From: a virus
DNA: 36,638 bases
Virus record (IMG/VR): IMGVR_UViG_3300022885_000045
Location: 1-36,638 of that record
Direction: 5' to 3' (one strand)
Positions 894 through 35,318 of this stretch are shown one piece after another (position 1 is the stretch's first letter; each line of letters opens with the position of its first letter). Below the pieces are notes generated by a model. The model did no database searches, was not told the origin of the DNA, and saw only the letters and a program-made list of their open reading frames with translations. The position numbers and the translations under genes are program-made.

Positions 894-3800
894 CTATGTG
901 TTTACACTAATTCCAGTATAAAAGTTTGCGCCAGATATTTCTAAAAATAAATTGTCAGATTGAAAACCCCTAATTTTATCTAAAAATATAAATAAATTGT
1001 CATTTCCAGTAATTGGTTCTGTTGACAAATATTTTATTCCAGTAGTATTATAAACACCAGTATATCCTAAATCATAAAAGTTTTTACCATTACCAGTAAA
1101 ATTATTTTCATAAGACACGAATATATTGTATTCGCCAGTAAAAGTTTTTATATAAGAAATACCAGAAAATATTCCAGTTAAATTCTCAAGGTTTATGTTG
1201 TATTGTTTTTCTTTTAACCCAGTTGGAATATAATTTCCATAATACCCAGTAAATTCGGAATATGCAGATTCATTCATCATTCCAGTATTCCCATCAATTC
1301 TAAAAATATTCTCTGGTTCACCTGTTATATAATTAAAATCAAAATAACCACTGTTATCGTTTATTGTTATATTCTTTAACCCCGTTATTTGTCCAGTTGC
1401 TTGAAATAATCCATTAACATATATAGAAGATGTTTTTGTGTATTGGCTAGTTGAGAAATTTACGCCGCTATCATAATAACCTGTAGAAGCGACGTTTTCA
1501 TTCAATTTTAAAAATTTTCCTGTTACTTTGTTAGAATTAACTGTAGAACCAATTCCAGATTCTAAATAATTATCTGATAAAAAAAAAGTACTTGAAGAAT
1601 TATAGTTGTATCTGATGCCACCATTTAAATAATTATTGTATTTTATAACAAAATCTCCATTATCTTCAAATCCAGTAAATCCATATCCAGTATATACATC
1701 ATTAAAATTTTCTATATACGCTCCAGAATCAAAATTTGGGAAATCTATACCGGGAACCCTATAATTTATATTTCGATCTATTACTATATAATTGCCGCTT
1801 ATTGATTCAATTAATACTCGCATTTTTGAATCGCTTGCATTAAATATGTTTGAAAAACTTATTTTCCCACTTTTATAACCCGAATAAATAATTGGATCTA
1901 TCAAAATATCTTTTTCTATGCCATATTGTGATCCAGTAACTATCCCAGTGAAATTATTGTATCCACTTATTGGGTTTGCTTGTTCAAATCCAGTAAAATT
2001 TGTTCCAGTTGTTTTGTTAGAATTTTGTTTTTCAGTAAAAAGATTATAATAAATATATTCAGAAATTTTATTTGATAAATTATTTCCAGAAATATTTTGA
2101 TCATCTATTAACTCCGTGGAAATTCCAGTAAATTTAAAAGTTGGGGAAATTGTATTATATAAAATTTCAAAAGATTTATCTAATCTAGCTTGTGTAGCAA
2201 ATTTTTTATATTGTATATTAAAAAATCCAGTATCATTTGTACTATTAGTTGATAAAGAAATCGCATAATTTTGCCCCATAGAAATACTCATTGAAAGTGT
2301 ATCGGAATCGCTATCCAACCTATTTGAATCAAGTAAACCGGAAATTATTTGGTCATTTCCGCTGCCACTTAATAAGTAATAACTTGCATATATATTAAAA
2401 TCACCATCAGCCGAAGATGTTAAACTATTAGTTTTTTTATCATAATACATCCTGTCAAAACATTTTAAATATATTGTATCATCGAAAAAGCTAGAATATT
2501 TTAACCAGCAGACATTATTTGGCTCATCTATTAAGCTATTATTTGAACCACTGAATAATTCTTTATAATAATATAAATTTTTTCTACCAATATTAGAAAT
2601 CGGCATAAAACCGCTCAAACCACCCAATATACCAGAATGAATAAAATCTATTCCTGTAGTTTTTTGATCTTGCCCTATTGCAGAATATATTGTTATATCA
2701 GTATTATTAACCAATCTAGCCGAATTTGGAATCATTTCCGAGACTTCTCTATAATCGATTGTATGATTTGATTTGTTTTTTGAAATCAATGGATAACCAG
2801 TTATGGAATAACCAAAATATTCTTCTCCCGAAATTTCTCCGAAAAGCCAAAATTTATGATCTGATTGAGTGTAACCAGAAAAATATAAAAACCCACTATC
2901 ATGAAAACCACCAACTAAATTATTTATACCAGTAGTATCTCCTTCGGCATTTTCTGCAAAACCATAAAATCCGCTTGTATGAGAAACTAATTTCCTAAAG
3001 TCTGTAAATCCATCTACATTAGAAACACATTCTAGACCAGTATAGGAATCATTTCTTCCTGTTAAAACCCCCCCCTGATCATTATAATAAGTAGAATATA
3101 ATGTAAATTCGTTTAATGAATTGCTTCCAGTATAATAACCAGTTGCATTTCCAGTATAATAATAATTTATTTGATTATCAGCAAATATAAAATCAGAAAA
3201 TACTTCATGACTTTCTATTCCAGTATATAAATTTCTATATGTCCCCCAATAACCACTTGTTTCAAAGTTTTCATATCTAGATAATTGGCCAGAACCAGTA
3301 ATATACCCAGTTCCAGAAAAAGTTCCGCCAGTGAAATGTCCAGTTCTTGAAAAAGCTATATTTACATCACCACTTCCTATCCCTGTTGATAAAAGATCAT
3401 AAGAAACTGCGTAATTACCAGTTAAAAATTCTGTTCCAGTTATATATTTTAATATTGTTGAGCCAGAATCAACACCAAGCAAATAGCTATTATATCCAGA
3501 TAGGTTTGTATCGATATTTCCAGTAATATTGCCAGATCCATTTAAATAACCAGAAAAATTTACCAATTGAAATCCAGTGTCTATTGATAAACCAGCTATT
3601 TCCAATTCTTTTAAATTGCTAGGTCCGCCCGTTTTTTCTAGGGAAATATATAAATTAGAAACATCATTTGTAGCAGTCAAACCCCTTCTATGAACATAAT
3701 CAAAAGAAAATAAATTTTGCCCAGTATTGTCAAAAAAATTATCATATGATAAATTAACGTCTAATGTTAGTGTTAATAAAGAATCAAAAGTAAGTGGTTT

Positions 3801-10393: not shown

Positions 10394-10400
10394 TTTACAC
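10394..10400 (-). promoter_or_regulatory. GTGTAAA start-proximal element
   Basis: Minus-strand GTGTAAA lies directly after the stop codon of the 548-residue gene and 8 nt before the ATG at 10385. No Shine-Dalgarno sequence is present here. Confidence 0.5.
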
Positions 10401-17694: not shown

Positions 17695-17701
17695 TTTACA
17701 C
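17695..17701 (-). promoter_or_regulatory. GTGTAAA start-proximal element (tape measure gene)
   Basis: Minus-strand GTGTAAA lies 8 nt before the ATG at 17686, inside a 45-nt AT-rich gap that holds no Shine-Dalgarno sequence. Confidence 0.5.
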
Positions 17702-17731: not shown

Positions 17732-18640
17732 TTATAAATCATTTGCATTTTTAACTTTTGAAAAATCAACTTGATTTATATTCATTTCTTGAGAATCTTT
17801 GTCTTTCGGCGACATTTTCCTTTTTTCCTTATTATTTTTTGCTTTTATGTATTTTATTAATTTATTTGGGTCTTCCCTTATATAATTTGGGGTATCAGCT
17901 TCTATGACACCATTATAAATTTGCCAATAATATGTAAAAATATTTTGAAAATAGGTTCTATCTTCTTGTTTTGTAGAAAAATAAAAAGGGATACTTTCTT
18001 TTGTATTACTTCCAAATATAGGTTGAAAGTAGTTAGACAATATCAATAACTCAATTTTTTTTGCAGAAAGACTTCTTAATTCTGAATATACGCTTATTTT
18101 AAATTCTGTTATTTCATTTATATTCAAGCAGTTGAAATCTTCTTCTGTTTCGAAATATCTTTCTTTAAAATTTTTATCATTAAAGCATAAATAGAAAAGC
18201 TCATATTCTTTTACTTTTTTTTCAACGTAATTTTCCAAAGAATCAGAAAATAATTTGTCCTTTTCATTTAATAAAAGAGAAATTTCTCTATCTGTTTCTT
18301 TAATATTTTTTTCTATTATTTCTTCTTCTTGTTTTGTTTTTGCTTTTTCAAGATTATCTTTTAAGCCCTCTAAATAATTTCTTTTTTCTTTTATTTTTTT
18401 TTCTTGTTCGATCCCCCAAAGGCCGTTTTCTTTAAATTCTTTTTCTAGTTCTTCGTTTGTTTTCTTTTCAGCAGATTTAGCGCGATTTAAAAAATACAGA
18501 TATTTTTCTTTTAACTTCGCGATATCAAAACAATTTGGGTGCTTATAGAAGATTAATTTTTTCTGGAAGTTGAATTTAGTATATCCGCTACATATTTCAG
18601 ACAGCATTATAGAATAATATATTTCTTTTTTTGAATGCAT
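17732..18640 (-). CDS. Putative tail assembly chaperone, second of two (302 aa)
   Basis: 302 residues, rich in Lys and Glu. A long charged helical segment at about residues 45-140 is likely coiled coil (for example ELEKEFKENGLW and KTKQEEEIIEKNIKE). The C-terminus is Lys-rich and polar. No known domain was recognised. It lies between the tail tube and tape measure genes, the position of gpG/gpGT-type chaperones that keep the tape measure soluble. It is coupled to the preceding gene by TAATG sharing one base. The reading frame carries a TGA six bases before its ATG, so a classical minus-one fusion with the previous gene is essentially excluded. It is larger than most tail chaperones. Confidence 0.55.
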   Translation of the reverse strand: MHSKKEIYYSIMLSEICSGYTKFNFQKKLIFYKHPNCFDIAKLKEKYLYFLNRAKSAEKKTNEELEKEFKENGLWGIEQEKKIKEKRNYLEGLKDNLEKAKTKQEEEIIEKNIKETDREISLLLNEKDKLFSDSLENYVEKKVKEYELFYLCFNDKNFKERYFETEEDFNCLNINEITEFKISVYSELRSLSAKKIELLILSNYFQPIFGSNTKESIPFYFSTKQEDRTYFQNIFTYYWQIYNGVIEADTPNYIREDPNKLIKYIKAKNNKEKRKMSPKDKDSQEMNINQVDFSKVKNANDL

Positions 18641-19476
18641 TATTCATTTTCTTTATCAATGCCTTCCGAAACTTTGTTGTCGAATTCTTCTTCTCTTTCG
18701 CTTTGTTTGTTGAGGTCGTTTATGGCATCATCCATTTCTTTTCTATCTGTGATATTATGCAAGAAGTAAAATAAAGCCACAGTACTCATTCTATCGAAAA
18801 TAGATTTAAATAATATGCTTTCGTTAGTCCCCTCTTCTTCAAAAGAATTGTCTTCCATTTGATAAAAAGAAGATTGTTTTCCATCAAAATCCCTTCCCTT
18901 GAAAAAGCTTTTAAAATCCTCGTCTTCACCCTTTTCATAAGTAAAGAATAGAATGCAGTAAAGTATAGTTTTGTTTCTTGCTTTATTATCAGCAGTATGA
19001 TTAAATATGTTATTTTTGATTTCTTCAAAAGCCACAAGCTCTCTTCTTAAAATATAAATTTTATCAAAAAGTTCTTCTTCTCTTTTTTCTTCTATTTCCG
19101 TTTTTTCATCTTTAGAAGCTATTAAGTAATATTCGTTTTGGACCTCGAATAATTCTTTTGATTTTTCAAGATACTCCATTTGTTCTTTATCTGATAATTC
19201 TCCGCCATTATCCAGATATTGCTTCATTATCATATCTTTAGTCATTAATCCCTTTTTTACGAATTCATTGACCTTTATAGAATAAAACATTTCTAAATCT
19301 TCCATTTCTAAACGATTCGGCAATTTAAAAACAAATTCTTTTTCGACTGGAATCTTTTTTGTTTCTAAAACTTTTTTTTCGGAACCGTCTTCTTGTTTTT
19401 CTATTACAGTTACTTCTTTTTCCTCGAAGTCTCTGTGAATATACTTGTGGAGTATTTGTTTATCTTTTAATTTCAT
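18640..19476 (-). CDS. Putative tail assembly chaperone, first of two (278 aa)
   Basis: 278 residues, strongly acidic overall. A beta-like N-terminus (residues 10-55) is followed by helical segments containing VNEFVKKGLMTKDMIMKQYL and KIYILRREL-like stretches, with an acidic tail. The order tail tube, this gene, 302-residue gene, tape measure matches the tail chaperone pair of long-tailed phages. It follows the tail tube terminator and has its own GTGTAAA element 12 nt before the ATG, so it probably starts a new transcription unit that runs into the tape measure. Function is assigned by position only. Confidence 0.55.
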   Translation of the reverse strand: MKLKDKQILHKYIHRDFEEKEVTVIEKQEDGSEKKVLETKKIPVEKEFVFKLPNRLEMEDLEMFYSIKVNEFVKKGLMTKDMIMKQYLDNGGELSDKEQMEYLEKSKELFEVQNEYYLIASKDEKTEIEEKREEELFDKIYILRRELVAFEEIKNNIFNHTADNKARNKTILYCILFFTYEKGEDEDFKSFFKGRDFDGKQSSFYQMEDNSFEEEGTNESILFKSIFDRMSTVALFYFLHNITDRKEMDDAINDLNKQSEREEEFDNKVSEGIDKENE

Positions 19477-19488
19477 AATTTATATATT

Positions 19489-19495
19489 TTTACAC
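19489..19495 (-). promoter_or_regulatory. GTGTAAA element downstream of the tail tube terminator
   Basis: Minus-strand GTGTAAA lies 12 nt before the ATG at 19476 and about 40 nt after the end of the tail tube terminator. A gene isolated by a terminator needs its own promoter, which favours reading this element as transcriptional. Confidence 0.55.
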
Positions 19496-19534: not shown

Positions 19535-19564
19535 AAAAAAACCCCGCCTTTTGAGCAGGGTTTT
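19535..19564 (-). terminator. Intrinsic terminator after the tail tube gene
   Basis: On the minus strand AAAACCCTGC, a 7-nt loop and GCGGGGTTTT form a 10-bp stem (one G-T wobble) followed by more T. It lies 35 nt past the stop codon of the tail tube gene. Confidence 0.9.
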
Positions 19565-19598: not shown

Positions 19599-20687
19599 TT
19601 ATATTCCAGAAAAGAAGATTCCCTTTCCAGTATCATTAGGACCACCAATTTGAACTGAGAATGAAATATCGACTGATTCATTAGAACCAATATCAAGTGA
19701 AACACTTTGACTGTCTAATTCCATTCCTTTTCCTTCCAATATAAATTGAACTGGACCATTACATGGTTTTTTGAATGTAACGCTCACATCTCTTGATTCT
19801 GTTGTACAAAAGATGCTAGCCAAATTACCAGTAGTGAAATTTGTTACGTCTGCTGTAATATCCAATGTTGCAGTCAAAGGAAAAGTTATTAGTTTTGCGT
19901 TAGGAAAATTACTTCCAATTTTATTTTGGTCTTCTCTATCAAGTGGGACATTCAAAGAAATGCTTTGAACATTCAAAGTATTAATTTCTGGACCACCGAA
20001 AGGAAGGCTCCCGCCCAAACTTAAAACCATATCGCCCGGTCTTAAACAATCAACCATAGCACCAGTTGTTGCAAATGGAATTGTAAATGGTTTTCCAGTT
20101 ACTTGAGATCCGTCAGAAGGATTAATAGCTGGGCTTGCTAGATCAGTAGAACCAGTATAAAAAGCGGCATTTAAAGCATCCCCTCCGATTGTAACTGTTG
20201 GAATTCCGCCGACAGAAGCCTCTAAAGCCCAAGAATTAATAAATCCATTACCAAGAGCGGCAACAATATGGGCATTTCTTTCTGTTGATGTATAATCAGA
20301 TGTTTTCATTGCATCTTCACCCTCGCCGACTTGAAGAATGAAATAATTTTTTTCTTCTTTTGTTCCTCTGATAATATCAGATATGCAACTTTGTGTATTT
20401 ACAGTCGAAAATCCCAATTTTGATTCGTTTGAGCCGTCTGTTAAATAATAAGCAAAGTTGAAACCAACTGTAGCAGGATCGATAATTTTTCTTTTACCAG
20501 CAAGCTCACCCAATTGATTGATATCCTGTCTATTGATAGTGACATCAGTACTAACACTTTGCGCTCTGTGAATTTGTCTAAGAAGGTTTACCCCGCTTGT
20601 TCCGCTGTTAAAGTGATCGCCTGTTGCACCTCCAGAAGAAGCGTAAACAACCGCGTTATTATAATAAAATCTTTTTCTTGTAGCCAT
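19599..20687 (-). CDS. Major tail (tube) protein
   Basis: 362 residues, beta-rich, Gly/Thr/Ser-rich and low in Lys. It has balanced composition and richer codon use than the surrounding tail genes, as expected for a highly expressed structural subunit. The position between the connectors and the chaperone/tape measure genes is that of the tail tube gene. The C-terminal about 90 residues (TATLDITADVTNF onward to QIGGPNDTGKGIFFSGI) look like an added Ig-like or repeated beta domain. The gene is followed by a hairpin and a strong intrinsic terminator, so its message can accumulate separately. Upstream are a degenerate element (TAGTAAA, 8 nt before the ATG) and a TGTAAA about 21 nt before it. No sheath gene accompanies it. 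Confidence 0.75.
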   Translation of the reverse strand: MATRKRFYYNNAVVYASSGGATGDHFNSGTSGVNLLRQIHRAQSVSTDVTINRQDINQLGELAGKRKIIDPATVGFNFAYYLTDGSNESKLGFSTVNTQSCISDIIRGTKEEKNYFILQVGEGEDAMKTSDYTSTERNAHIVAALGNGFINSWALEASVGGIPTVTIGGDALNAAFYTGSTDLASPAINPSDGSQVTGKPFTIPFATTGAMVDCLRPGDMVLSLGGSLPFGGPEINTLNVQSISLNVPLDREDQNKIGSNFPNAKLITFPLTATLDITADVTNFTTGNLASIFCTTESRDVSVTFKKPCNGPVQFILEGKGMELDSQSVSLDIGSNESVDISFSVQIGGPNDTGKGIFFSGI

Positions 20688-20702: not shown

Positions 20703-20737
20703 ACTTGTTTTACAGTTTTTTTCTTTGTTTGTGAAAA

Positions 20738-23085: not shown

Positions 23086-23427
23086 TTATGATCTCAACCA
23101 GTTTTCCAAATCCCTTCTTTTTTCAACAGGCAAAACACCGTCTTTGTCAAAAAGGTTCCCACCGCTTTCAGATTGATCAATATTAGATTTTGATTTTTCA
23201 GAAACAAAGCTTTTGTTTAGTTTTTCTCTTTTTAATTGATTCGGTAGGCCAATCGAAACCCTAAACTTTGCACATAATTCATCCAATTCGACATTGCTAG
23301 ATCTATTTACCAAATCTTTGAATGAAGAAACTGAATAAGTTAAAAGCCTATTTTTAGTGTTTGTATAAAGAATGGAATCTATTGATTCTTTATCTGAATT
23401 TATTTTTTTGCCAATATTTTTTTCCAT
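23086..23427 (-). CDS. Hypothetical protein after the capsid gene (113 aa)
   Basis: 113 residues, basic and polar, with a central helical part (about 25-70, RLLTYSVSSFKDLVNRS then ELDELCAKFRVSIGL) and a Lys/Ser-rich, poorly ordered second half. I do not recognise it. It is the first gene after the capsid terminator and carries GTGTAAA 7 nt before the ATG, so it probably opens the connector transcription unit. Possible roles are a capsid-associated or connector accessory protein. Confidence 0.6.
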   Translation of the reverse strand: MEKNIGKKINSDKESIDSILYTNTKNRLLTYSVSSFKDLVNRSSNVELDELCAKFRVSIGLPNQLKREKLNKSFVSEKSKSNIDQSESGGNLFDKDGVLPVEKRRDLENWLRS

Positions 23428-23434
23428 AGTATTT

Positions 23435-23441
23435 TTTACAC
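23435..23441 (-). promoter_or_regulatory. GTGTAAA element downstream of the capsid terminator
   Basis: Minus-strand GTGTAAA lies 7 nt before the ATG at 23427 and about 20 nt after the capsid terminator. It is the second case where the element directly follows a terminator. Confidence 0.55.
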
Positions 23442-23461: not shown

Positions 23462-23489
23462 AAAAAAACCCGCCTTAATAGGCGGGTTT
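23462..23489 (-). terminator. Intrinsic terminator after the major capsid gene
   Basis: The minus strand reads AAACCCGCC, loop TATTAA, GGCGGGTTT, then TTTT: a perfect 9-bp stem with a T7 run, starting about 20 nt past the capsid stop codon. This is a textbook rho-independent terminator. Confidence 0.95.
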
Positions 23490-26028: not shown

Positions 26029-26970
26029 ATTTTTAGATTTATTGTTATTTACAGTGTTTTTATTATTATGTGAAATATTTTTTTCTGGTTTATCAAAAAA
26101 TTGTAATAATTCTTTATTTTCTTCTTTACAAGAGTCGCTTTTAGCTGTATTAAATATACTTTCTATTTCTTCTCCATCTATGCTTAGTAATGTTTTTTTA
26201 TCTACTAATTCTATCAAATCTTCTTCGCCAATATTTACAGATACGCCTTTAACATTAGCCGCTGGGTTAGTAGTAAAACCAATCCCAACTGGTAAAGCTG
26301 GCCCCAAAATAATTCTCCCCACTGGAGTTCCGTCTCTAAGTTTTCCAGATCCCCCAAATTTCTTCAAATATTTTTTATATTTTAATATGTCTTTTGGTTC
26401 CGTGTATATTTCGCATTCTTCTATGTTTTTGCTGCCAACTGCGATTGCATAATATTTAAAAATAATTTCCCAACTTGCTGATATAGCTTGGTACATTGAA
26501 TCTTCTGGATCAGAAGACCTTTTAATTAAATCAATAAAATTTGGGTTTCCAAGTTTATATAATACAGCAGACGCGCTTAAATAAAAAGGGTCTTTTCTTT
26601 TTTTAATATCTTTTGGCTTTAAGATATCATATGTTTCCATTTCATTAAAAGAAACATCAATCATATGACCAACAACTTTTTGTGGCTTGTGTTCTATATT
26701 TGTTGGTTTGTGTTTAAAGTAATCGATTACTTCTGTTGCAATTGGGCTAATTAAAGCCTCGCCATTTTCATTAATTTGATTAACAACAGTAATTGGGAAG
26801 GCCACAGACAACAAATCGACATTTTTAGAAAAGTCTATTTCATTGCCGACAATTTTTTGTATGTTATCTAAGTTTGCACAAGAAAAATCACACAATTCTT
26901 CTTTCGAATGAATGTCTTCAATTTTTGTGATATTACTTTTAAATACCGCTCTTTGAATTTCATCAAACAT
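25333..26970 (-). CDS. Prohead maturation protease fused to scaffold domain
   Basis: 545 residues in two parts. Residues about 50-260 look like a herpes/HK97/T4 gp21-type prohead serine protease: NIEHKPQKVVGHMIDVSF supplies the likely catalytic His94, and QAISASWEIIF the likely nucleophile (Ser164 or Ser166). Residues about 300-545 are a long, very acidic and Lys/Glu-rich coiled-coil scaffold. An Asn/Lys linker joins them. A Met at residue 315 (ATG at 26026-26028), right after the linker and preceded by an AT-rich TGTAAA-containing stretch, could start a separate 231-residue scaffold. The gene is coupled to the 144-residue gene by TAATG. Protease plus scaffold in one frame is known in other tailed phages. 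Confidence 0.8.
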   Translation of the reverse strand: MFDEIQRAVFKSNITKIEDIHSKEELCDFSCANLDNIQKIVGNEIDFSKNVDLLSVAFPITVVNQINENGEALISPIATEVIDYFKHKPTNIEHKPQKVVGHMIDVSFNEMETYDILKPKDIKKRKDPFYLSASAVLYKLGNPNFIDLIKRSSDPEDSMYQAISASWEIIFKYYAIAVGSKNIEECEIYTEPKDILKYKKYLKKFGGSGKLRDGTPVGRIILGPALPVGIGFTTNPAANVKGVSVNIGEEDLIELVDKKTLLSIDGEEIESIFNTAKSDSCKEENKELLQFFDKPEKNISHNNKNTVNNNKSKNMELETQIKLLSSELDKFKDAFKTDKAEETKANLIKVVESTLKEKNQEWVEKIEAEKSARENEKAERQKLSDTVDSLKETIDFLKTEKAQANQEALVTSRMDEILEKYELSTAAKKQVLNQIKQIGESDEDFENYKKDTLEVIFASFDKEAIENAKEERIEAIKVEAKKLVEAETEKIKAAAEKVSGLTFEEILSKASEEGTDLPNSQRVEEEGDLVDKIVSNLKSENVNVK

Positions 26971-27404
26971 TAACCAACAATGATTTCGCCAGTTTTCTTG
27001 TTTGCCACAGAAATCATTGGCTTATAAACTTCGTATTCCCCTTCTAAACCAAGAGCTTTAATAGCTTTCGATAATTGTTCGTTACTTTTTACGTTCGGCA
27101 GATGTCCTTTCATGTGATTTTGGAGGATTTTCATGAAGTAGCCCATTTCTTCTCTAACTGCGTCAAATTTATAATTCATATGATCGTAAACATAGGAAAT
27201 ACTTCTATCCATTTCTTCGTAAGTTGGAGTAGAAGCCATAACTTCTTCTTCTGTCATGTCAGACGCTTTGTTTTCTTTCCAATAGGAAATGTCATATTCT
27301 ACAGAAGCTTTGTTTAATGTTGGCACGCAACCGAATTTTTCTTTGACCCCATCGGCATATTTTTGAGCCATTTTTTCTGTTAAAAAGTCTGATTTAATTT
27401 TCAT
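26970..27404 (-). CDS. Hypothetical protein between portal and protease (144 aa)
   Basis: 144 residues, mixed helical, with a Met/Tyr-rich middle (DRSISYVYDHMNYKFDA, then GYFMKILQNHMK) and a C-terminal part with Lys and Gly (KTGEIIVG). I do not recognise it. It lies between portal and protease genes, so a head-associated or portal-binding role is possible. An element ATGTAAA (one change from the consensus) sits 10 nt before its ATG and it ends with a TAATG overlap onto the protease gene. Confidence 0.6.
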   Translation of the reverse strand: MKIKSDFLTEKMAQKYADGVKEKFGCVPTLNKASVEYDISYWKENKASDMTEEEVMASTPTYEEMDRSISYVYDHMNYKFDAVREEMGYFMKILQNHMKGHLPNVKSNEQLSKAIKALGLEGEYEVYKPMISVANKKTGEIIVG

Positions 27405-27414
27405 ATCTATATGT

Positions 27415-27421
27415 TTTACAT
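27415..27421 (-). promoter_or_regulatory. ATGTAAA variant start-proximal element
   Basis: One mismatch from GTGTAAA, 10 nt before the ATG at 27404, in the short gap after the portal gene. Confidence 0.35.
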
Positions 27422-29440
27422 TTATTTATCTTTATTGTGAAATTTTTTGCTGTGATATATAATAGCGGAATTGAATATATTTTCATTGTATTTTTCGGCG
27501 ATATTATATATTTCTGGATTGGTATCAAAAGATGTTAACAAATTAATGTCTTTAGAAACTTTCTCTATATTTTTGTGCCAATCTTTGTTTTCACTAGAAG
27601 CGACAACAGATTCAACCATATGATCTATAAACTTTTGATCTTTTTTTGTAATTCTTTTTTTTGCTTGATTTTGTTTGTATTTTTCTTTTCCGTATTTTTC
27701 TAATTCAGAAATTGCAAAAACAACATCAGCAATGTCTTTTTTATAAAGAACTTCTTTTTTACTCGCAGAAGATTTTTGTGCTAATTCAGAAGGTCGGCCA
27801 GAAGATGAAATAGGTGGTTTTTTAGCACCGCTAGCCACCCCATTTTCTTCTTTCCCCACTGGAGTTCCACCAACAATAGGATTATATAGTCCTTCTTCTC
27901 TTTGTTGTAAAAATTCTTTTTGTGATTCTTCTAATTTTTCTTTTGTAGGATAAACCCCTGTTTTTAAGAATTCAATTCCAGTCTCTGGTGTTAATATCCC
28001 CAACTCCATTAACCTTTGTGCGACTCTATTGACAACATTTTCATCTTTTAGGTTCATTTCTTGAAATTCCGCTGTAGGAGACTTTTGAAATCCAGCTTGT
28101 TCACAGATATCATCAATTTCTTGTTGAATAAAAGTTTTAAAATTAGCTCTTGGTTCTTTGATTCTTTCTAAGAATATCTTTGTTTTAATCATTTGATTAG
28201 CGAATTTACCCTCACTAGAAGAACCAGTTCCAAGAATAATGTTTTGCAAGCCCTCTTTAATGTCTTCGTTTACGATCTCGTACTTCTCTTTCCCAAGGAC
28301 TTTCTTTAAATCTGGAATAACGAAATCAGCTTTAGTTGTATAATCAGAAACCAAAACACGGCCAACGCTTTGATTCAAGAAAAGGCTTTGCATAGCTTTG
28401 ATGTGTTTAGGATTAACACCGCCTTTTTCTGGTTCATTACCCATTGTGATAAGCAAAACAATTTGTTCTACTGTTCGGCATATTGCTTGGTCTATTTTTT
28501 TAAGCTCTAATTTCCAGTTTATATCATCCAATACTGGGTAAACAAAAGGGACTCCAAATGGCTCATAGTCTTGTTTCTTATAAAAAGAATACCTTATCTT
28601 TTCTGGGTCCAATTCAATATAAAGGCCATCATCCAACCAAGTTCCTTCTTTGATTTGCCTTTGCGTTTCTTTTGGAAGTGCATCGAAAATTTGTTGATCC
28701 CTGTCTGTTTTTGGATCTCTAAGTCTTTCTAACTCGTATTGAGACAAAGCTTTTTGGTAATTACCATTATGGAAAGAAGACGAGTGATACAAAGAAATTT
28801 CATAAGGGTTTAATAACAAATACCTTATTGGAATATTTAAACTTTTTACATTGTAAATTTTTGAAATCTGTGCGATTTCTTCTAAAGAAAATTTTGCGTT
28901 TATTCTATAAAGAAAAACATTGCCAGAACGGTAAAATTCTCTGAAAAATTGGTCTTTTAAGCTTTCTATGTTTATTCTTTTTAGCCAAGATTTAACAAAT
29001 TCGCGACTCTGTTTTGTTCCACCCTCTAGGTACATTTCTGAATTCGCAAATTCAGACATAATATCGATTGTGTTTCTTACAATAGAAATATTGGCATAAG
29101 CTTTTTGTGTAAGCTCAATAGCCTTTCTCATTGTTATACCATGTTTTGTGGTACTGAAAGGCATATTTAATTGGTCTATATTATGATATCTAGCATCTTT
29201 GCTATCAACAAAAACCTGATTAAATCTTGAACCAGTTGTTCCAGTAGAGTTGTTTCTTCTTGCTTTTGAGAGATTAGAATTAAATAAATTCGGCGAATCA
29301 TCACCCATTGGTTCCCAATCTTCGCCGAAAGACACGGAATGAGAAACTTTAGGTGTATTTGAAGGGGTTTCTTTACCCAATCTCTTGTTCCAGTAATCTA
29401 AATTCTTTTTTTTATAAGGTCTTTTTGTCTTTTCAGGCAT
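27422..29440 (-). CDS. Portal protein
   Basis: 672 residues. A disordered basic N-terminus (about 1-70) is followed by the portal body: a helical wing with KAYANISIVRNTIDIMSEFA, then FREFYRSGNVFLYRI, RYLLLNPYEISLY, a stem/crown part around WKLELKKIDQAICRTVEQIV and LGTGSSSEGKFANQMIKTK, and EPRANFKTFIQQEIDDICEQ. This matches the order of motifs in phage portal proteins (RTVEQ-type central helix and a Lys/Ser tunnel region). The C-terminal about 170 residues are Lys/Glu/Ser-rich and look flexible. It follows the large terminase gene and has GTGTAAA 7 nt before the ATG. It probably forms the dodecameric vertex and DNA entry channel. Confidence 0.88.
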   Translation of the reverse strand: MPEKTKRPYKKKNLDYWNKRLGKETPSNTPKVSHSVSFGEDWEPMGDDSPNLFNSNLSKARRNNSTGTTGSRFNQVFVDSKDARYHNIDQLNMPFSTTKHGITMRKAIELTQKAYANISIVRNTIDIMSEFANSEMYLEGGTKQSREFVKSWLKRINIESLKDQFFREFYRSGNVFLYRINAKFSLEEIAQISKIYNVKSLNIPIRYLLLNPYEISLYHSSSFHNGNYQKALSQYELERLRDPKTDRDQQIFDALPKETQRQIKEGTWLDDGLYIELDPEKIRYSFYKKQDYEPFGVPFVYPVLDDINWKLELKKIDQAICRTVEQIVLLITMGNEPEKGGVNPKHIKAMQSLFLNQSVGRVLVSDYTTKADFVIPDLKKVLGKEKYEIVNEDIKEGLQNIILGTGSSSEGKFANQMIKTKIFLERIKEPRANFKTFIQQEIDDICEQAGFQKSPTAEFQEMNLKDENVVNRVAQRLMELGILTPETGIEFLKTGVYPTKEKLEESQKEFLQQREEGLYNPIVGGTPVGKEENGVASGAKKPPISSSGRPSELAQKSSASKKEVLYKKDIADVVFAISELEKYGKEKYKQNQAKKRITKKDQKFIDHMVESVVASSENKDWHKNIEKVSKDINLLTSFDTNPEIYNIAEKYNENIFNSAIIYHSKKFHNKDK

Positions 29441-29447
29441 AAATATT

Positions 29448-29454
29448 TTTACAC
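29448..29454 (-). promoter_or_regulatory. GTGTAAA start-proximal element (portal gene)
   Basis: Minus-strand GTGTAAA lies 7 nt before the portal ATG (29440), in the 36-nt gap after the terminase gene. Confidence 0.5.
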
Positions 29455-29476: not shown

Positions 29477-31402
29477 TTAAAACATAACTGGAGTAAAACC
29501 ACCGTATTCTTCTTCGTCTGACATATTATTCATCTCATAATATAATTGTACAAACCAATTCCCAAGCACCAAAGCAGAGTAGGAGTCTTTACGGGTTTTA
29601 TACTTACCTTTGTCTCTTTTCAAACTATCAGGTAAGTCAAAGCTTCTATTTCCAAGCGCAGAAACTTTTTGTATAATTAAAGCTGTCTCGTTTATGGTTA
29701 AGTCTATATTGTCGCTTTGCTTTTCGAGGAAATCAATCACTTTACTTTGTTCTTCAATTTTGTCGTTGTATTTTAATTCTGTGTCAAATTTTATGTTTTT
29801 TAGATCTATTTTTTTCAGATCTTTCATATTTGTTTCCAGATTGTGTCTAGAAGCAAATAGTATTTTTTGTTTTTCAAAGCTTTTGCATAACATTTCATTT
29901 GATTGTCTTATCCAATTTGAAGAAGGAGTTCTTAAAAACACATAATCTTTATAGTCTGGCTTGTAGAATCTTTTTAATTTTTGCAGCTCTTTTTTTCTCT
30001 CTCTTTTGCCTTCGTCAGAATTGTCACTCTCTGTTTTGACAGAAGGAAATATTCCAAGATTAATATTTTGGTCTTTAAATAAAGCGCTTTCATTGCAAGC
30101 TTTTATAAATTGATCCCCGCCGTTATAGTCGCCTATAATCCCGACAACATTAAAATTTTTCAATAAATACAAGAAGTAATTCATATGGGACTCTAATTGT
30201 TGGCCTCTCAAAGCATAGCTATGGACAACTATCCCCGCTTTTTTTTCTTCTACAAGTTTTATAACATGAATAGCAAAATCATCTGACGTATCATTACCAG
30301 CCCAAGATGGGTCAAAAGCAATAATGTATTTTTCTCCACCCTCCCCTTTTAATTCTACCATTGGATATTCACCTATGTTTAACGCACACTCTTTTATTGT
30401 TTTTAAATTAAAGAATCCAGAACTATCGTCTGTAAATTCAGCGCCGAACTCCCTTTTAAATTGGGCTTCTGTCATTGTTGCGCGGGATTGATTCAAAAGA
30501 TTTTGGTCATGCAAACCTTTTGGTAAAGCATCATGGGCAACTTGAAAAACTGCTCTTGTTGCGGTATCATCGATTTCTTTGTCTGGATTCGCTTCTTTGG
30601 CTTTTTTTAATGCTTCATTAGGATCTTCAATAAAATTTATGTATGTAGAATAAAGTCTATAAAAGAAATCAAAAGTATAACCCGCAGATGATAAACTCAC
30701 TAATTTGTTGTTTTGGAAATCAGTTCTTTCTTCTTCGGTAAGTTGGCCCTGTTCTATCAACTTATCTTCTATTTTTGTGATTCTTTCTCTTTCTCTAGGA
30801 TCGGCTACAACCCCTAAGAAGGGAACTATAACTTCATTGTAAATCTTTTCTGGCATCAACAACATTTCGTCACAGATAATAACATTAAAACGAAAACCAC
30901 GGAGCTTGCCCCCGTCTCCCAACGGCAAAGAAAGAATTTTGCTTCTTCCTATTTCCATTATCCACTGGTCGCTTCCTTTGCTAACTTTTGTTACGCATTT
31001 TTTGAATGGGCCAGCTTTTTTATTGTTCATGATATCCTCTAATTTTGTGAACATCATTTTTGATTGACGAAATGAGGGCGCGAGAATACCAACAGTAACA
31101 CCTTGATTCATCAAAGCATAAAGACCAGCATAAATAGATGACAAGTAAGTTTTACTTCCACCTCGCGAAATAACACCAATAGTATAATCAGTATTAAACA
31201 TCGTTTTAATCATTATTTCTTGTATAGGATACAAATCAACATCCATTATCATCTTTGTTGTCCATCTTATGTTATGATACATGAATTTATACAAGAGAAC
31301 TTTGGCTTTATGTTCTTCTATATAGCCATCGATAGATTCTATTTCATCATTTATATTATGAAATCTTGGGTTTCTTCTTTTCTGTTCTCCTACTACTAAC
31401 AT
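29477..31402 (-). CDS. terL: Terminase large subunit
   Basis: 641 residues. The N-terminal ATPase has Walker A IGVISRGGSKT (about 75-85), a following helix with ILAPSFRQSKMMF, and Walker B NVIICDE (Asp178-Glu179). The C-terminal RNase H-fold nuclease shows Asp364 (IIAFDPSWAG), Asp425 (GIIGDYNGGD) and a third likely metal ligand near Asp606 (RKDSYSALVLGNW). This is the motor that cuts and pumps DNA into the prohead through the portal. The start overlaps the end of the ERCC4 nuclease gene by 7 nt, showing tight coupling in the packaging operon. The length is typical of T4-like and large siphovirus terminases. Confidence 0.95.
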   Translation of the reverse strand: MLVVGEQKRRNPRFHNINDEIESIDGYIEEHKAKVLLYKFMYHNIRWTTKMIMDVDLYPIQEIMIKTMFNTDYTIGVISRGGSKTYLSSIYAGLYALMNQGVTVGILAPSFRQSKMMFTKLEDIMNNKKAGPFKKCVTKVSKGSDQWIMEIGRSKILSLPLGDGGKLRGFRFNVIICDEMLLMPEKIYNEVIVPFLGVVADPRERERITKIEDKLIEQGQLTEEERTDFQNNKLVSLSSAGYTFDFFYRLYSTYINFIEDPNEALKKAKEANPDKEIDDTATRAVFQVAHDALPKGLHDQNLLNQSRATMTEAQFKREFGAEFTDDSSGFFNLKTIKECALNIGEYPMVELKGEGGEKYIIAFDPSWAGNDTSDDFAIHVIKLVEEKKAGIVVHSYALRGQQLESHMNYFLYLLKNFNVVGIIGDYNGGDQFIKACNESALFKDQNINLGIFPSVKTESDNSDEGKRERKKELQKLKRFYKPDYKDYVFLRTPSSNWIRQSNEMLCKSFEKQKILFASRHNLETNMKDLKKIDLKNIKFDTELKYNDKIEEQSKVIDFLEKQSDNIDLTINETALIIQKVSALGNRSFDLPDSLKRDKGKYKTRKDSYSALVLGNWFVQLYYEMNNMSDEEEYGGFTPVMF

Positions 31403-32320: not shown

Positions 32321-33367
32321 TTAAATTAAGCTTGTATCTATTCCCCACAATCTGGCTTTAAATTCATCGATTGTTTCAAGTCTTTGCACCTCGTCTTGTT
32401 TTTCTCTTTCATATATCTTGGCTTGTTTGAGGATATTTTTTCGATCCTCTTCATCTTGAAAAGCCTCGACCAAAGACAAAATGCTTTCATTGGATTGCAA
32501 TTGTTTTTGTTTTCTTTGTGCGCGGGAACCATTGAGTTTGTTGATTAATTTTTCGATTCTATCTGCGCAAGAAGCATATTCCCCACTTTTTGCTTTAAGC
32601 ATTTCCGCCATTTTTACAGAGTGCTCTTTTTCTTCTGCTTCATCAAATAATCTAGTCAGCTTTTTTCTGTGCCTTTCTAAATCTTTAAGCATAACATAAT
32701 CAGCCGATAAATTTAAATAAAGATTTGATTCATCTGCCGTTATATCATGCTGATCCCAAACTGATTTTATTAAATTGCTTTCAAAAATTTCTCTATCCTC
32801 AATTGTTTCATAGGAGTTCATCATATAAACAAATCGCGGCGAGTTCATTGAGTTTAATAAATTTTCAATAGACTTTTTGTATTTTGGCGATAATTTGTTT
32901 TCTTCAAGAGAAACATTCACATATTTGTTGATTTTTTGTATAACTTTGCCCATTGATTTTGGAGCGGAATACTTTTTATCAAATATTTCATTAGAATCTA
33001 TACCCAGTTCTCTTACAACCCTAACAATTTCTTTTTGTTCAAAACAAAGCGGCTTAATATTTTTATTTGGGAAAATTAACGTAGCTATTTCTAAACTATT
33101 CATTCCTTTTCTAGCTTTATCGGTAATGAAATTTATTTGGTCTTGGTTAAATTTTATAGAATCTAGTTTTTTATATTTAGTAGTTTTATAATCAATATTT
33201 CTATCTACTAAAAATTTAGCTATGGCTTTTCCGAGTTTGCTTCTTCCGTCATACTTGCCGCCACTTAATTCTTTTGCCAAATAACTGATGTTTGGGTTCT
33301 TTTTACAATTTGCCAAAACAAATTCTTCTTCTTCTTTTGAAAGAGTATGTTCCTTTGAAGTGGTCAT
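32321..33367 (-). CDS. Putative small terminase or DNA-binding packaging protein (348 aa)
   Basis: 348 residues. The N-terminal about 120 residues hold two helix-turn-helix-like units: one near residues 15-50 (ISYLAKELSGGKYDGRSK) and one near 80-120 (KGMNSLEIATLIFPNKN). The rest is helical and charged with a coiled-coil C-terminus. It lies directly before the ERCC4 nuclease and the large terminase, where a small terminase normally is, and DNA-binding plus coiled coil is the expected layout. It is longer than usual (typical 150-200 residues) and I see no specific family motif, so a different DNA-binding regulator is possible. The ATG is 1 nt after the stop of the sigma-like gene. Confidence 0.5.
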   Translation of the reverse strand: MTTSKEHTLSKEEEEFVLANCKKNPNISYLAKELSGGKYDGRSKLGKAIAKFLVDRNIDYKTTKYKKLDSIKFNQDQINFITDKARKGMNSLEIATLIFPNKNIKPLCFEQKEIVRVVRELGIDSNEIFDKKYSAPKSMGKVIQKINKYVNVSLEENKLSPKYKKSIENLLNSMNSPRFVYMMNSYETIEDREIFESNLIKSVWDQHDITADESNLYLNLSADYVMLKDLERHRKKLTRLFDEAEEKEHSVKMAEMLKAKSGEYASCADRIEKLINKLNGSRAQRKQKQLQSNESILSLVEAFQDEEDRKNILKQAKIYEREKQDEVQRLETIDEFKARLWGIDTSLI

Positions 33368-33368
33368 A

Positions 33369-34097
33369 TTAAATTATTATATCCTCATCTTCCATTATTT
33401 TTTTTGCTTTAATAAGGAAATTCTTTTTTAATTTTTTTATTGTATTATAACCAGCGGGTCTGTTTTTTTCGTTTGTTATGTATCCAAGTTTTTCCGCAAC
33501 TATTTTCTCTGGTAATTTTTGTATAAATAATAAATCATAACATTTATAATCTTTTATCGTCAATGAAAGCCTCATCTTCTTGTGCAAAAGATTTTCAGAA
33601 GCCTCGTAGTCTATATATGTGGTATTTCTATTCTCTATTGGAATTTCCTGTGTTTCGATGGGGACGGGTAATTTAATGTTGTATGCTTGTTTTTTTGATC
33701 TTATCCATTTAGCATACATTGGGCACTCTTCACATTGGATTCCAGATTTTGTTAGTGTACAACCATTTTCTTCTGAATTAAGAACAAATTTACCGCCTTT
33801 TTTGCTGGAATTAAATTCGCATCCCAAACATGGCCTCGCATAATTATAATAATTGTCTCTGAGAATATTTTTTATTCTATTATGGGCTATTACGTTTACC
33901 CAAGGGCCAATTTTTCCCTTTTCTTCGTCCCAAAGGTGCAGCTTTTCGTATATGTGTAAAAATATTAATTGTTTTACATCCTCGAAACTCATCCAAGGGA
34001 TCGCCTTTAGATTCCACTTGTTTCTTTTGGAGGTTACGACTCTATTTATTTCTTCGTAATTTTCCTCGAAGATTCTTTTCCTTTTTCTGTCTTGCAT
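33369..34097 (-). CDS. Sigma-factor-like protein with zinc-binding insert
   Basis: 242 residues. Residues about 36-83 carry sigma region 2 style sequence (SFEDVKQLIFLHIYEKLHLW and GPWVNVIAHNRIKNILRDN), matching the E-D-x2-Q-x2-F / W-x3-I-A-x-N-x6-R spacing of sigma-70 family core helices. An insert with C90-x2-C93, C113, C122-x2-C125 probably binds zinc. Residues about 178-232 resemble a region 4 helix-turn-helix (LPEKIVAEKLGYITNEKN then YNTIKKLKKN). It would direct host RNA polymerase to phage promoters, as T4 gp55 and other phage sigma factors do. It lies between a zinc-ribbon gene and the packaging genes. Confidence 0.72.
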   Translation of the reverse strand: MQDRKRKRIFEENYEEINRVVTSKRNKWNLKAIPWMSFEDVKQLIFLHIYEKLHLWDEEKGKIGPWVNVIAHNRIKNILRDNYYNYARPCLGCEFNSSKKGGKFVLNSEENGCTLTKSGIQCEECPMYAKWIRSKKQAYNIKLPVPIETQEIPIENRNTTYIDYEASENLLHKKMRLSLTIKDYKCYDLLFIQKLPEKIVAEKLGYITNEKNRPAGYNTIKKLKKNFLIKAKKIMEDEDIII

Positions 34098-34106
34098 AAG
34101 AAGGGA

Positions 34107-34499
34107 TTAGGAAATATCTTTAGACTTTGAGGCGGGAGAACAATCTTTTGTCATGTTTTTAGAAAATTCCCCGTAATCAATTATGTCCGATTTGTTTTTC
34201 CTTTTGCCCATCTTAAATTGGCTGTTCCCCTGTTCAGAGGATTTGTTTAATGCTGACTGTAAAGTTGTTCTTTGTTGTATTGTTCCATCTATAATAACAT
34301 TGGCAGATGAAAAATCAATTTTTAAATTATCAATATCAATATCAAATTCATTGTCTTTAATTTCTTCTGATCTAGATGTACTTTTTTGTGTTTTTATTAA
34401 TGTTTCGCCTATTCTGGTTTCACAAAATGGACAAACTTTTGGCTTTTTACTTGAAAATTGTATTTTCTCTGCGCAGTTACTGCAATATATATGACTCAT
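34107..34499 (-). CDS. Zinc-ribbon protein (130 aa)
   Basis: 130 residues. The N-terminal zinc ribbon is C6-x2-C9 ... C23-x2-C26 (IYCSNCAEKIQF, VCPFCETRIG). The remaining 100 residues are polar, Asp/Ser/Lys-rich and probably disordered, with one beta-like patch (SSANVIIDGTIQQRT). It is 9 nt upstream of the sigma-like gene, so the two are likely co-expressed; it could be a transcription co-factor or a single-strand nucleic-acid binder. A GTGTAAA copy lies 33 nt before its ATG, farther than at other genes. Function is unknown. Confidence 0.65.
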   Translation of the reverse strand: MSHIYCSNCAEKIQFSSKKPKVCPFCETRIGETLIKTQKSTSRSEEIKDNEFDIDIDNLKIDFSSANVIIDGTIQQRTTLQSALNKSSEQGNSQFKMGKRKNKSDIIDYGEFSKNMTKDCSPASKSKDIS

Positions 34500-34532: not shown

Positions 34533-34539
34533 TTTACAC
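34533..34539 (-). promoter_or_regulatory. GTGTAAA element, distal position (33 nt)
   Basis: Minus-strand GTGTAAA lies in the gap between the PhoH-like and zinc-ribbon genes, 33 nt before the ATG at 34499. If the element is a promoter this gene would have a leader of about 25 nt, unlike the others. Confidence 0.4.
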
Positions 34540-34545
34540 TATAAC

Positions 34546-35271
34546 TTATTTTTTGTGAGATTTAAGGCTTTTAATAATGAATTTTAATATTTCGCTTCTT
34601 TTAATATCTTCTTCATTAAATTCAAAACAGTGAATCCCCCATTCTTGCGCGTCTTCACTATCAAATATGTTATACATTTTTTCAAAACCACTTTTACTAC
34701 CAATATCAGATTGCATTGGATCTCCACAAAAGAAGAATTTGCTATGCTTTCCTATTCTTGTTATGATAGTTTGACATTCATTGAAAGTCATATTTTGAGC
34801 TTCGTCCACAATAACCACTTTTTTGTTTTGACTCGCGCCTCTAAAAAAATTCACTGGTATCCCAGTTACTCTTTGGCTTTTTAATAATTCTTTTATATCA
34901 TCTGGGCTCAAAAGCTCTTCTAGTTTTTCTTTTAGTGGTAATAAAAATGGATCAAATTTTTCATCTATAGATCCGGGTAAAGCCCCAATACTTTTATCCG
35001 CGCTCTCAGCTAAACTTCTAATATAAACTAATTCTAGTTCCTCATGAACTTTCATTAATTCTAGTGCTGATAATACTGATATAAATGTTTTTGCGCTTCC
35101 TGCAACACCACTTATAAAGAATATATTTGTTTTATTGTTTAGAGATAATTTTAAAAAGTTTTTTTGCTTATCTGTAAGATCAAACTTTTTAATTTTAAAG
35201 TCGCTTTTAATTTGCGGGATTACTATTTCTTCTTCTTTAGACGTATTTTTAGAATTCTTTTTTCTTGGCAT
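34546..35271 (-). CDS. PhoH-like ATPase
   Basis: 241 residues. Walker A is G55-VAGSA-K61-T62, Walker B V-V-I-V-D156-E157-AQN, and a third motif FFCGDPMQSD (about 180-189) matches the PhoH-family sensor. A linker helix pattern around SADKSIGALPGSIDEKFDPF is also typical of PhoH. The role of the PhoH-like proteins in phages is unsettled; RNA or DNA helicase-like activity and phosphate-stress links have been proposed. It is the first gene of the minus-strand module, with GTGTAAA 9 nt before the ATG, and it begins the long leftward operon. Confidence 0.85.
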   Translation of the reverse strand: MPRKKNSKNTSKEEEIVIPQIKSDFKIKKFDLTDKQKNFLKLSLNNKTNIFFISGVAGSAKTFISVLSALELMKVHEELELVYIRSLAESADKSIGALPGSIDEKFDPFLLPLKEKLEELLSPDDIKELLKSQRVTGIPVNFFRGASQNKKVVIVDEAQNMTFNECQTIITRIGKHSKFFFCGDPMQSDIGSKSGFEKMYNIFDSEDAQEWGIHCFEFNEEDIKRSEILKFIIKSLKSHKK

Positions 35272-35280
35272 ACAAATTAA

Positions 35281-35287
35281 TTTACAC
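35281..35287 (-). promoter_or_regulatory. GTGTAAA element, leftward member of divergent pair
   Basis: Minus-strand GTGTAAA lies 9 nt before the PhoH-like ATG (35271), back to back with a plus-strand copy at 35312-35318. Confidence 0.55.
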
Positions 35288-35311: not shown

Positions 35312-35318
35312 GTGTAAA
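35312..35318 (+). promoter_or_regulatory. GTGTAAA element, rightward member of divergent pair
   Basis: Plus-strand GTGTAAA lies 8 nt before the ATG at 35327. The 24-nt AT-rich spacer between the two copies would hold the upstream parts of both promoters. Confidence 0.5.

What the first reader, a model, noticed from the sequence alone, without database searches (positions are those of the whole stretch)
33369..34499. Sigma-like protein with cysteine insert next to a zinc-ribbon protein: candidate partner of the GTGTAAA element
Residues 36-83 fit sigma region 2 spacing, residues 178-232 fit a region 4 helix-turn-helix, and a five-cysteine insert (90, 93, 113, 122, 125) interrupts the usual linker. 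A zinc-ribbon gene sits 9 nt upstream. T4 gp55 shows that phages can retarget host polymerase to a short -10-like element alone. The link between this protein and GTGTAAA is inference.
Basis: partly seen in the sequence, partly recalled or inferred. Interest (0 to 1): 0.75.

Follow-up and report, generated by a model that had tools for sequence, protein, structure and literature searches.

The report
Phage sigma factor with cysteine insert
An uncultured bacterial virus carries its own two-part sigma factor (the protein that tells RNA polymerase where to start) with an unusual probable zinc-binding insert, and its structural genes begin directly behind a short repeated signal, GTGTAAA, that this protein most likely reads.

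Summary
The protein at 33369-34097 (-) is a sigma-70 family factor, ECF-like. Pfam Sigma70_r2 hits above its cut-off, a two-region sigma superfamily model spans residues 5-225, and separate AlphaFold models of the N-terminal part and C-terminal domain match sigma region 2 and region 4. The five-cysteine insert (90, 93, 113, 122, 125) lies between them. A 130-aa zinc-ribbon gene sits 9 nt upstream.

GTGTAAA is a real promoter-like element. It is the most enriched 7-mer upstream of genes (9 of 27 starts, 0.15 expected). It usually ends 7-10 nt before ATG, so transcripts would be (nearly) leaderless. It heads transcription units, including right after the two best terminators. It recurs on a late-strand gene outside the window and is absent from 12 opposite-arm genes, some with TTGACA boxes instead. 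No -35 box was found. It resembles both the T4 late promoter and ECF -10 elements.

The gp55 comparison is half right: gp55 has no region 4, this protein does. That this protein reads GTGTAAA is still inference. Only near-identical relatives were found, so co-occurrence could not be tested. I rate it a new variant of a known kind: a phage late sigma factor with a probable zinc-binding linker.

The parts
33369..34097 (-). sigma-70 family (ECF-like) factor, 242 aa, with a Cys-rich insert between regions 2 and 4
   Evidence: Pfam Sigma70_r2 over cut-off; TIGR02937 residues 5-225; AlphaFold matches
33849..33995 (-). sigma region 2 (residues 35-83): core binding and -10 reading
   Evidence: Pfam PF04542 residues 35-82; structure matches of residues 1-93 to ECF sigma region 2
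33723..33830 (-). five-cysteine module (C90, C93, C113, C122, C125), probable zinc-binding fold in the region 2-region 4 linker (residues 84-165)
   Evidence: sequence; short beta strands predicted at low confidence; zinc binding is inference
33387..33602 (-). sigma region 4 (residues 166-237), helix-turn-helix
   Evidence: AlphaFold pLDDT mostly 64-85; Z 9.9, 2.1 A to 3hug_E, Z 9.7, 1.3 A to 3vfz_A
34107..34499 (-). small zinc-ribbon protein, 130 aa, first gene of the two-gene unit; possible coactivator or anti-sigma
   Evidence: two CxxC pairs; only weak library hits
34533..34539 (-). GTGTAAA ahead of the zinc-ribbon/sigma unit, 33 nt before ATG
35281..35287 (-). GTGTAAA, 9 nt before ATG of the PhoH-like gene
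35312..35318 (+). GTGTAAA, divergent; 8 nt before the second ATG (35327) of a 68-aa gene
29448..29454 (-). GTGTAAA, 7 nt before ATG of 27422-29440 (672 aa, first gene after terminase)
27415..27421 (-). variant ATGTAAA, 10 nt before ATG of 26970-27404
23435..23441 (-). GTGTAAA, 7 nt before ATG of 23086-23427, 24 nt after a terminator
23466..23489 (-). intrinsic terminator directly upstream of the GTGTAAA at 23435
   Evidence: folds at -16.8 kcal/mol, z -3.65
20709..20715 (-). variant CTGTAAA, 21 nt before ATG of 19599-20687
19538..19564 (-). intrinsic terminator upstream of the GTGTAAA at 19489
   Evidence: folds at -15.0 kcal/mol, z -4.10
19489..19495 (-). GTGTAAA, 12 nt before ATG of 18640-19476
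17695..17701 (-). GTGTAAA, 8 nt before ATG of the tape measure gene 12050-17686
10394..10400 (-). GTGTAAA in a 15-nt gap, 8 nt before ATG of 8427-10385
901..907 (-). GTGTAAA inside the end of the upstream gene, 8 nt before ATG of 398-892

Best explanation
The protein is a phage-encoded, ECF-like sigma factor for late transcription. It joins host RNA polymerase through regions 2 and 4 and directs it to the -10-like element GTGTAAA in front of structural and packaging genes and of its own operon. The element lies so close to the start codon that most late mRNAs begin at or within a few bases of ATG (leaderless), which fits the lack of Shine-Dalgarno sequences. The cysteine insert is most likely a zinc-binding module in the linker that follows region 2.4. 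There it could steady the upstream edge of the promoter or bind a partner such as the neighbouring zinc-ribbon protein, making up for the missing -35 contact. Shown here: the sigma domains, the insert, the motif, its placement and its behaviour as a transcription-unit head. Inferred: that this protein reads the motif, zinc binding, the timing, and the role of the insert.
For: Sigma identity. Motif is a promoter: top-enriched upstream 7-mer; 8 of 12 copies lie in the ~3.5% of the window that is intergenic, all facing a gene; absent from nearly all operon-internal starts, the exception being the copy at 901 inside the end of the upstream gene; the two best coding-strand terminators are each followed within 24-42 nt by GTGTAAA; it recurs 7 nt before ATG of a late-strand gene outside the window (L056 16684). 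Arm-specific: 8 of 26 structural-strand starts against 0 of 12 opposite-arm starts (Fisher 0.03), where TTGACA boxes appear at 2 of 12 starts and at none of the 26. This is the only sigma or RNA polymerase-like gene identified in the sequence held, and its operon carries the motif. Fit of protein to motif: ECF -10 elements are short (GTT for SigH, PMC6411747), and a solved engineered ECF region 2 binds GTAAAA (PDB 5or5 title). T4 late promoters also work through a -10-like element (PMC7892883), and a T4-like phage varies at the -13/-12 positions (PMC2988020).
Against: No experiment or independent relative links protein to motif. ECF factors normally need a -35 element and a rigid spacer (PMC6411747); none is detectable here, although region 4 is present. 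The phage genome is incomplete, so another transcription factor or RNA polymerase may lie outside. Region 2 and the insert are modelled at low to middling confidence (mean pLDDT 51-55). The NCBI sigma model hit is under its curated cut-off. The sigma operon's own motif sits 33 nt before ATG, not 7-10.
Confidence: 0.62

Rival explanations
1. GTGTAAA is a promoter read by another factor (a host alternative sigma, or a phage RNA polymerase or activator encoded outside the window); the sigma-like protein serves another gene set or another phase.
For: The genome is incomplete; other unknown genes lie nearby (32321-33367, 348 aa, no family). No -35 box is seen although the protein has region 4.
Against: In about 44 kb of phage sequence this is the only identified sigma or RNA polymerase-like gene; its own operon carries the motif; TTGACA boxes on the opposite arm suggest host sigma-70-type promoters look different.
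Confidence: 0.25
2. GTGTAAA is a translation-start or mRNA-processing signal rather than a promoter.
For: Nearly fixed distance to ATG in most cases; no Shine-Dalgarno sequences (4 of 26 against 2.1 by chance).
Against: Absent from almost all operon-internal starts; 21 (variant) and 33 nt from ATG in two cases; follows terminators; sits in a divergent pair at 35281/35312; absent from opposite-arm genes of the same phage.
Confidence: 0.08
3. The protein is a sigma remnant or anti-host decoy that binds RNA polymerase but does not initiate; the cysteine insert blocks the RNA exit path.
For: The linker is 82 residues and the ECF linker normally threads the active-site cleft and RNA exit channel (PMC6411747), where a folded zinc module might not fit.
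Against: Both DNA-reading domains are kept, the region 2 W-x4-A-x-N core is intact, and late promoters are present to be served.
Confidence: 0.05

Closest known systems
ECF (group 4) sigma factors, e.g. E. coli sigma-E, M. tuberculosis SigH/SigL
   Same: Region 2 plus region 4, no sigma 1.1 or sigma 3 found; best HMM and structure matches; short -10 element containing GT
   Different: 82-residue linker with a five-cysteine insert; no -35 element found; phage gene with no recognised anti-sigma
T4 gp55 (phrog_234) with gp33 and gp45
   Same: Works like it: phage factor for late genes at a -10-like element without a -35 box; GTGTAAA resembles TATAAATA (T4 consensus from my own knowledge); both proteins end in a short acidic/hydrophobic tail (EDEDIII here; clamp binding untested)
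   Different: gp55 has no region 4 and belongs to another family; no gp33 or clamp seen here
phrog_1740 sigma factors of Bacillus phage Slash and Microcystis phage MaeS
   Same: Sigma gene a few genes upstream of a related terminase in distantly related phages (tape measure also shared with Slash)
   Different: No cysteine insert; sequence link to this protein not significant (E 0.31); their genes use AGGAGG-type ribosome sites, this phage does not
-10 element abutting ORFs in Deinococcus-Thermus (leaderless mRNA; PMC12340547)
   Same: -10-type motif placed directly before the start codon
   Different: There it is the host -10 region; here it is a phage arm-specific GTGTAAA

Membership tests
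ECF / group 4 sigma-70 factor | Region 2 present | tested here: met
   PF04542 26.5 bits over cut-off 24; structural matches of residues 1-93 to sigma factors
ECF / group 4 sigma-70 factor | Region 4 helix-turn-helix present | tested here: met
   Z 9.9, 2.1 A over 73 aa to SigL region 4; TIGR02937 alignment reaches position 163/165; no Pfam region 4 hit
ECF / group 4 sigma-70 factor | No sigma 1.1 or sigma 3 domain | tested here: met
   No such Pfam or NCBIfam hit; region 2 begins near the N-terminus
ECF / group 4 sigma-70 factor | Curated NCBIfam sigma70-ECF score | tested here: not met
   32.6 bits against 42.9; the Slash sigma also misses it at 41.2
ECF / group 4 sigma-70 factor | Promoters with conserved -35 and -10 and fixed spacer | tested here: inconclusive
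   -10-like motif clear; no -35 above shuffles; link to this protein unproven
T4 gp55 late sigma | Domain 2 only, no region 4 | tested here: not met
   Region 4 present
T4 gp55 late sigma | Sequence family membership (phrog_234) | tested here: not met
   gp55 hits phrog_234 at 2.9e-69; this protein does not hit it
T4 gp55 late sigma | C-terminal sliding-clamp epitope | not tested
   Tail EDEDIII is acidic/hydrophobic; no clamp gene recognised in the window
phrog_1740 phage sigma (Slash, MaeS) | HMM match | tested here: inconclusive
   E 0.31, residues 7-81 only; no BLAST-level match in Slash or MaeS
Zinc-binding module | Four or more metal ligands in a folded module | not testable with these tools
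   Two CxxC pairs plus C113; low-confidence beta strands

The most novel reading that the evidence does not exclude
The cysteine module is a zinc-binding promoter reader built into a sigma factor. Placed right after region 2.4, where sigma-70 has its extended -10 reader, it recognises the 5' GTG part of GTGTAAA and replaces the -35 contact, giving a one-element promoter that also sets the start of leaderless late mRNAs.
Probability: 0.2. Interest if true: 0.75.

Novelty: new variant of a known kind. Interest (0 to 1): 0.52.

Why it matters
Outside T4 and a few model phages, few phage late promoters have both a known element and a known factor (own knowledge). Here a single uncultured phage offers a candidate pair that can be tested with two purified parts. 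A cysteine insert in the sigma linker would be a new architectural variant of a very large protein family. Late promoters that abut ATG would show a phage tying promoter choice to leaderless translation.

Tried and rejected
Relatives by peptide patterns (sigma, terminase, 389-aa protein, 1176-aa protein, BCS1-like ATPase) returned only near-identical copies of the same phage, apart from one remote ATPase match. Degenerate DNA patterns for region 2 with or without the first CxxC gave only this phage or chance hits in viral and genome contigs (one search used the wrong lysine codon and missed the query itself). tblastn in the phage collection gave one spurious hit in what looks like bacterial sequence. 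395 genomes from the phylum of a Cyclobacteriaceae contig gave two ordinary ECF sigma genes without the insert. A -35 box was sought by alignment and not found above shuffles. Slash and MaeS upstreams showed mainly Shine-Dalgarno sequences and no comparable motif of this strength. Co-variation of motif and protein could not be tested: the copies found are 98-100% alike and all motif sites that could be read in them are identical. No paper found describes GTGTAAA as a phage promoter. The BFVD search gave only weak sigma-like matches.

Full report
WHAT IS THERE. The window is a 36,638-base virus record, 31% G+C. It is a siphophage-like fragment: tape measure gene at 12050-17686, terminase at 29477-31402 and PhoH at 34546-35271, almost all genes on the minus strand. 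Other contigs of what appears to be the same phage (98-100% alike where compared) extend it by several kilobases past the right end into an arm with genes in the opposite direction: deoxynucleotide kinase, BCS1-like AAA ATPase, methyltransferase.

THE PROTEIN. The 242-aa protein at 33369-34097 is a sigma-70 family factor. Pfam Sigma70_r2 covers residues 35-82 above its cut-off. The NCBIfam two-region sigma superfamily model aligns residues 5-225 to positions 2-163 of 165 at E 5.5e-8, under its strict cut-off. AlphaFold with essentially one sequence gave a poor whole-chain model (pLDDT 51.5), but the C-terminal domain (mostly pLDDT 64-85) fits sigma region 4 (3hug_E Z 9.9, 2.1 A, 73 aa; 3vfz_A Z 9.7, 1.3 A, 62 aa). 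A separate model of residues 1-145 fits region 2 of ECF factors over residues 1-93 (6jcx_F Z 8.0, 3.8 A, 84 aa; 1h3l_B Z 7.6, 2.8 A, 74 aa), and the listed rows are sigma factors or sigma-containing transcription complexes. Z near 8 alone is not decisive, but HMM and structure agree. Between the domains lies an 82-residue linker with five cysteines, C90xxC93, C113, C122xxC125. It begins right after the region 2.4 helix. Zinc binding is inference from the two CxxC pairs.

THE NEIGHBOUR. The 130-aa protein 9 nt upstream has two CxxC pairs (C6, C9, C23, C26) and only weak library hits. By position it could be a coactivator or an anti-sigma; nothing tested decides.

THE MOTIF. GTGTAAA is the most enriched 7-mer in the 40 nt before 27 gene starts: 9 observed, 0.15 expected, binomial 2e-14 before correction for 16,384 words. 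Eight of its 12 copies lie in 1,265 intergenic bases, all facing a gene. In most cases it ends 7-10 nt before ATG. If it sits like the T4 late or ECF -10 elements, the first transcribed base is at or within about five bases of ATG; this register is inference. It behaves as a promoter: it is missing from nearly all operon-internal starts (the copy at 901, inside the end of the upstream gene, is the exception), it follows the two strongest coding-strand terminators, it occurs as a divergent pair at 35281/35312, and it recurs before a late-strand gene in a contig beyond the window (L056 16684, 7 nt). The opposite arm has it at 0 of 12 starts (against 8 of 26; Fisher p 0.03) and shows TTGACA boxes at two. 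No -35 element stands out above shuffles. Shine-Dalgarno sequences are absent (4 of 26, chance 2.1).

THE LINK. That the protein reads the motif is inferred from four points. It is the only sigma or RNA polymerase-like gene identified in the sequence held. Its operon carries the motif. The motif is arm-specific. Its sequence fits what ECF region 2 domains read: SigH needs GTT (PMC6411747), and PDB entry 5or5 is an engineered sigma-E region 2 bound to GTAAAA (title). It also resembles the T4 late element, where a T4-like phage varies at the -13/-12 positions (PMC2988020). Against it: ECF factors normally require a -35 element, and the genome is incomplete.

COMPARISON. It works like T4 gp55 in outline but is not a member of that family: gp55 has domain 2 only (PMC2988020), and gp33, unrelated to region 4, takes the flap (PMC7892883). 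It is closer to ECF sigmas, with an unusual linker. Slash and MaeS, distantly related by terminase, also carry a sigma gene a few genes upstream of terminase (phrog_1740), but without the cysteine insert and without significant similarity to this protein. Leaderless starts from a -10 element abutting the ORF are known in Deinococcus-Thermus (PMC12340547).

LIMITS. The host is unknown.

Noticed in passing
window minus-strand genes 398-35271; L056 9148-14780: Stop codon use differs by arm: structural-arm genes use TAA 23, TAG 3, TGA 0; opposite-arm genes use TGA 8, TAA 2, TAG 2. The structural arm overlaps stop and start as TAATG, the other arm often as ATGA.
   Followed up: partly
L056 9148, 13418, 15731; window ~35560: TTGACA/TTGACT boxes lie close upstream of opposite-arm genes (and one late-strand gene at L056 15731); some would also give nearly leaderless mRNAs.
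   Followed up: partly
L002:5785-7636: One strain carries a two-gene insertion that looks like an IS607-type element (resolvase-like plus TnpB-like protein), absent from the window and L004.
   Followed up: no
L056:10001-11221: BCS1-like AAA ATPase (phrog_7485, E 4e-73), otherwise found mostly in large phages.
   Followed up: no
L003:705-3736: A stretch with apparently foreign composition and coding inside an otherwise near-identical contig; possible chimera or insertion.
   Followed up: no
L013 (Bacillus phage Slash) upstreams at 3123, 6392, 8456, 11601: CTGTATTAAT-like words recur before several Slash transcription units; possibly its own late promoter.
   Followed up: no
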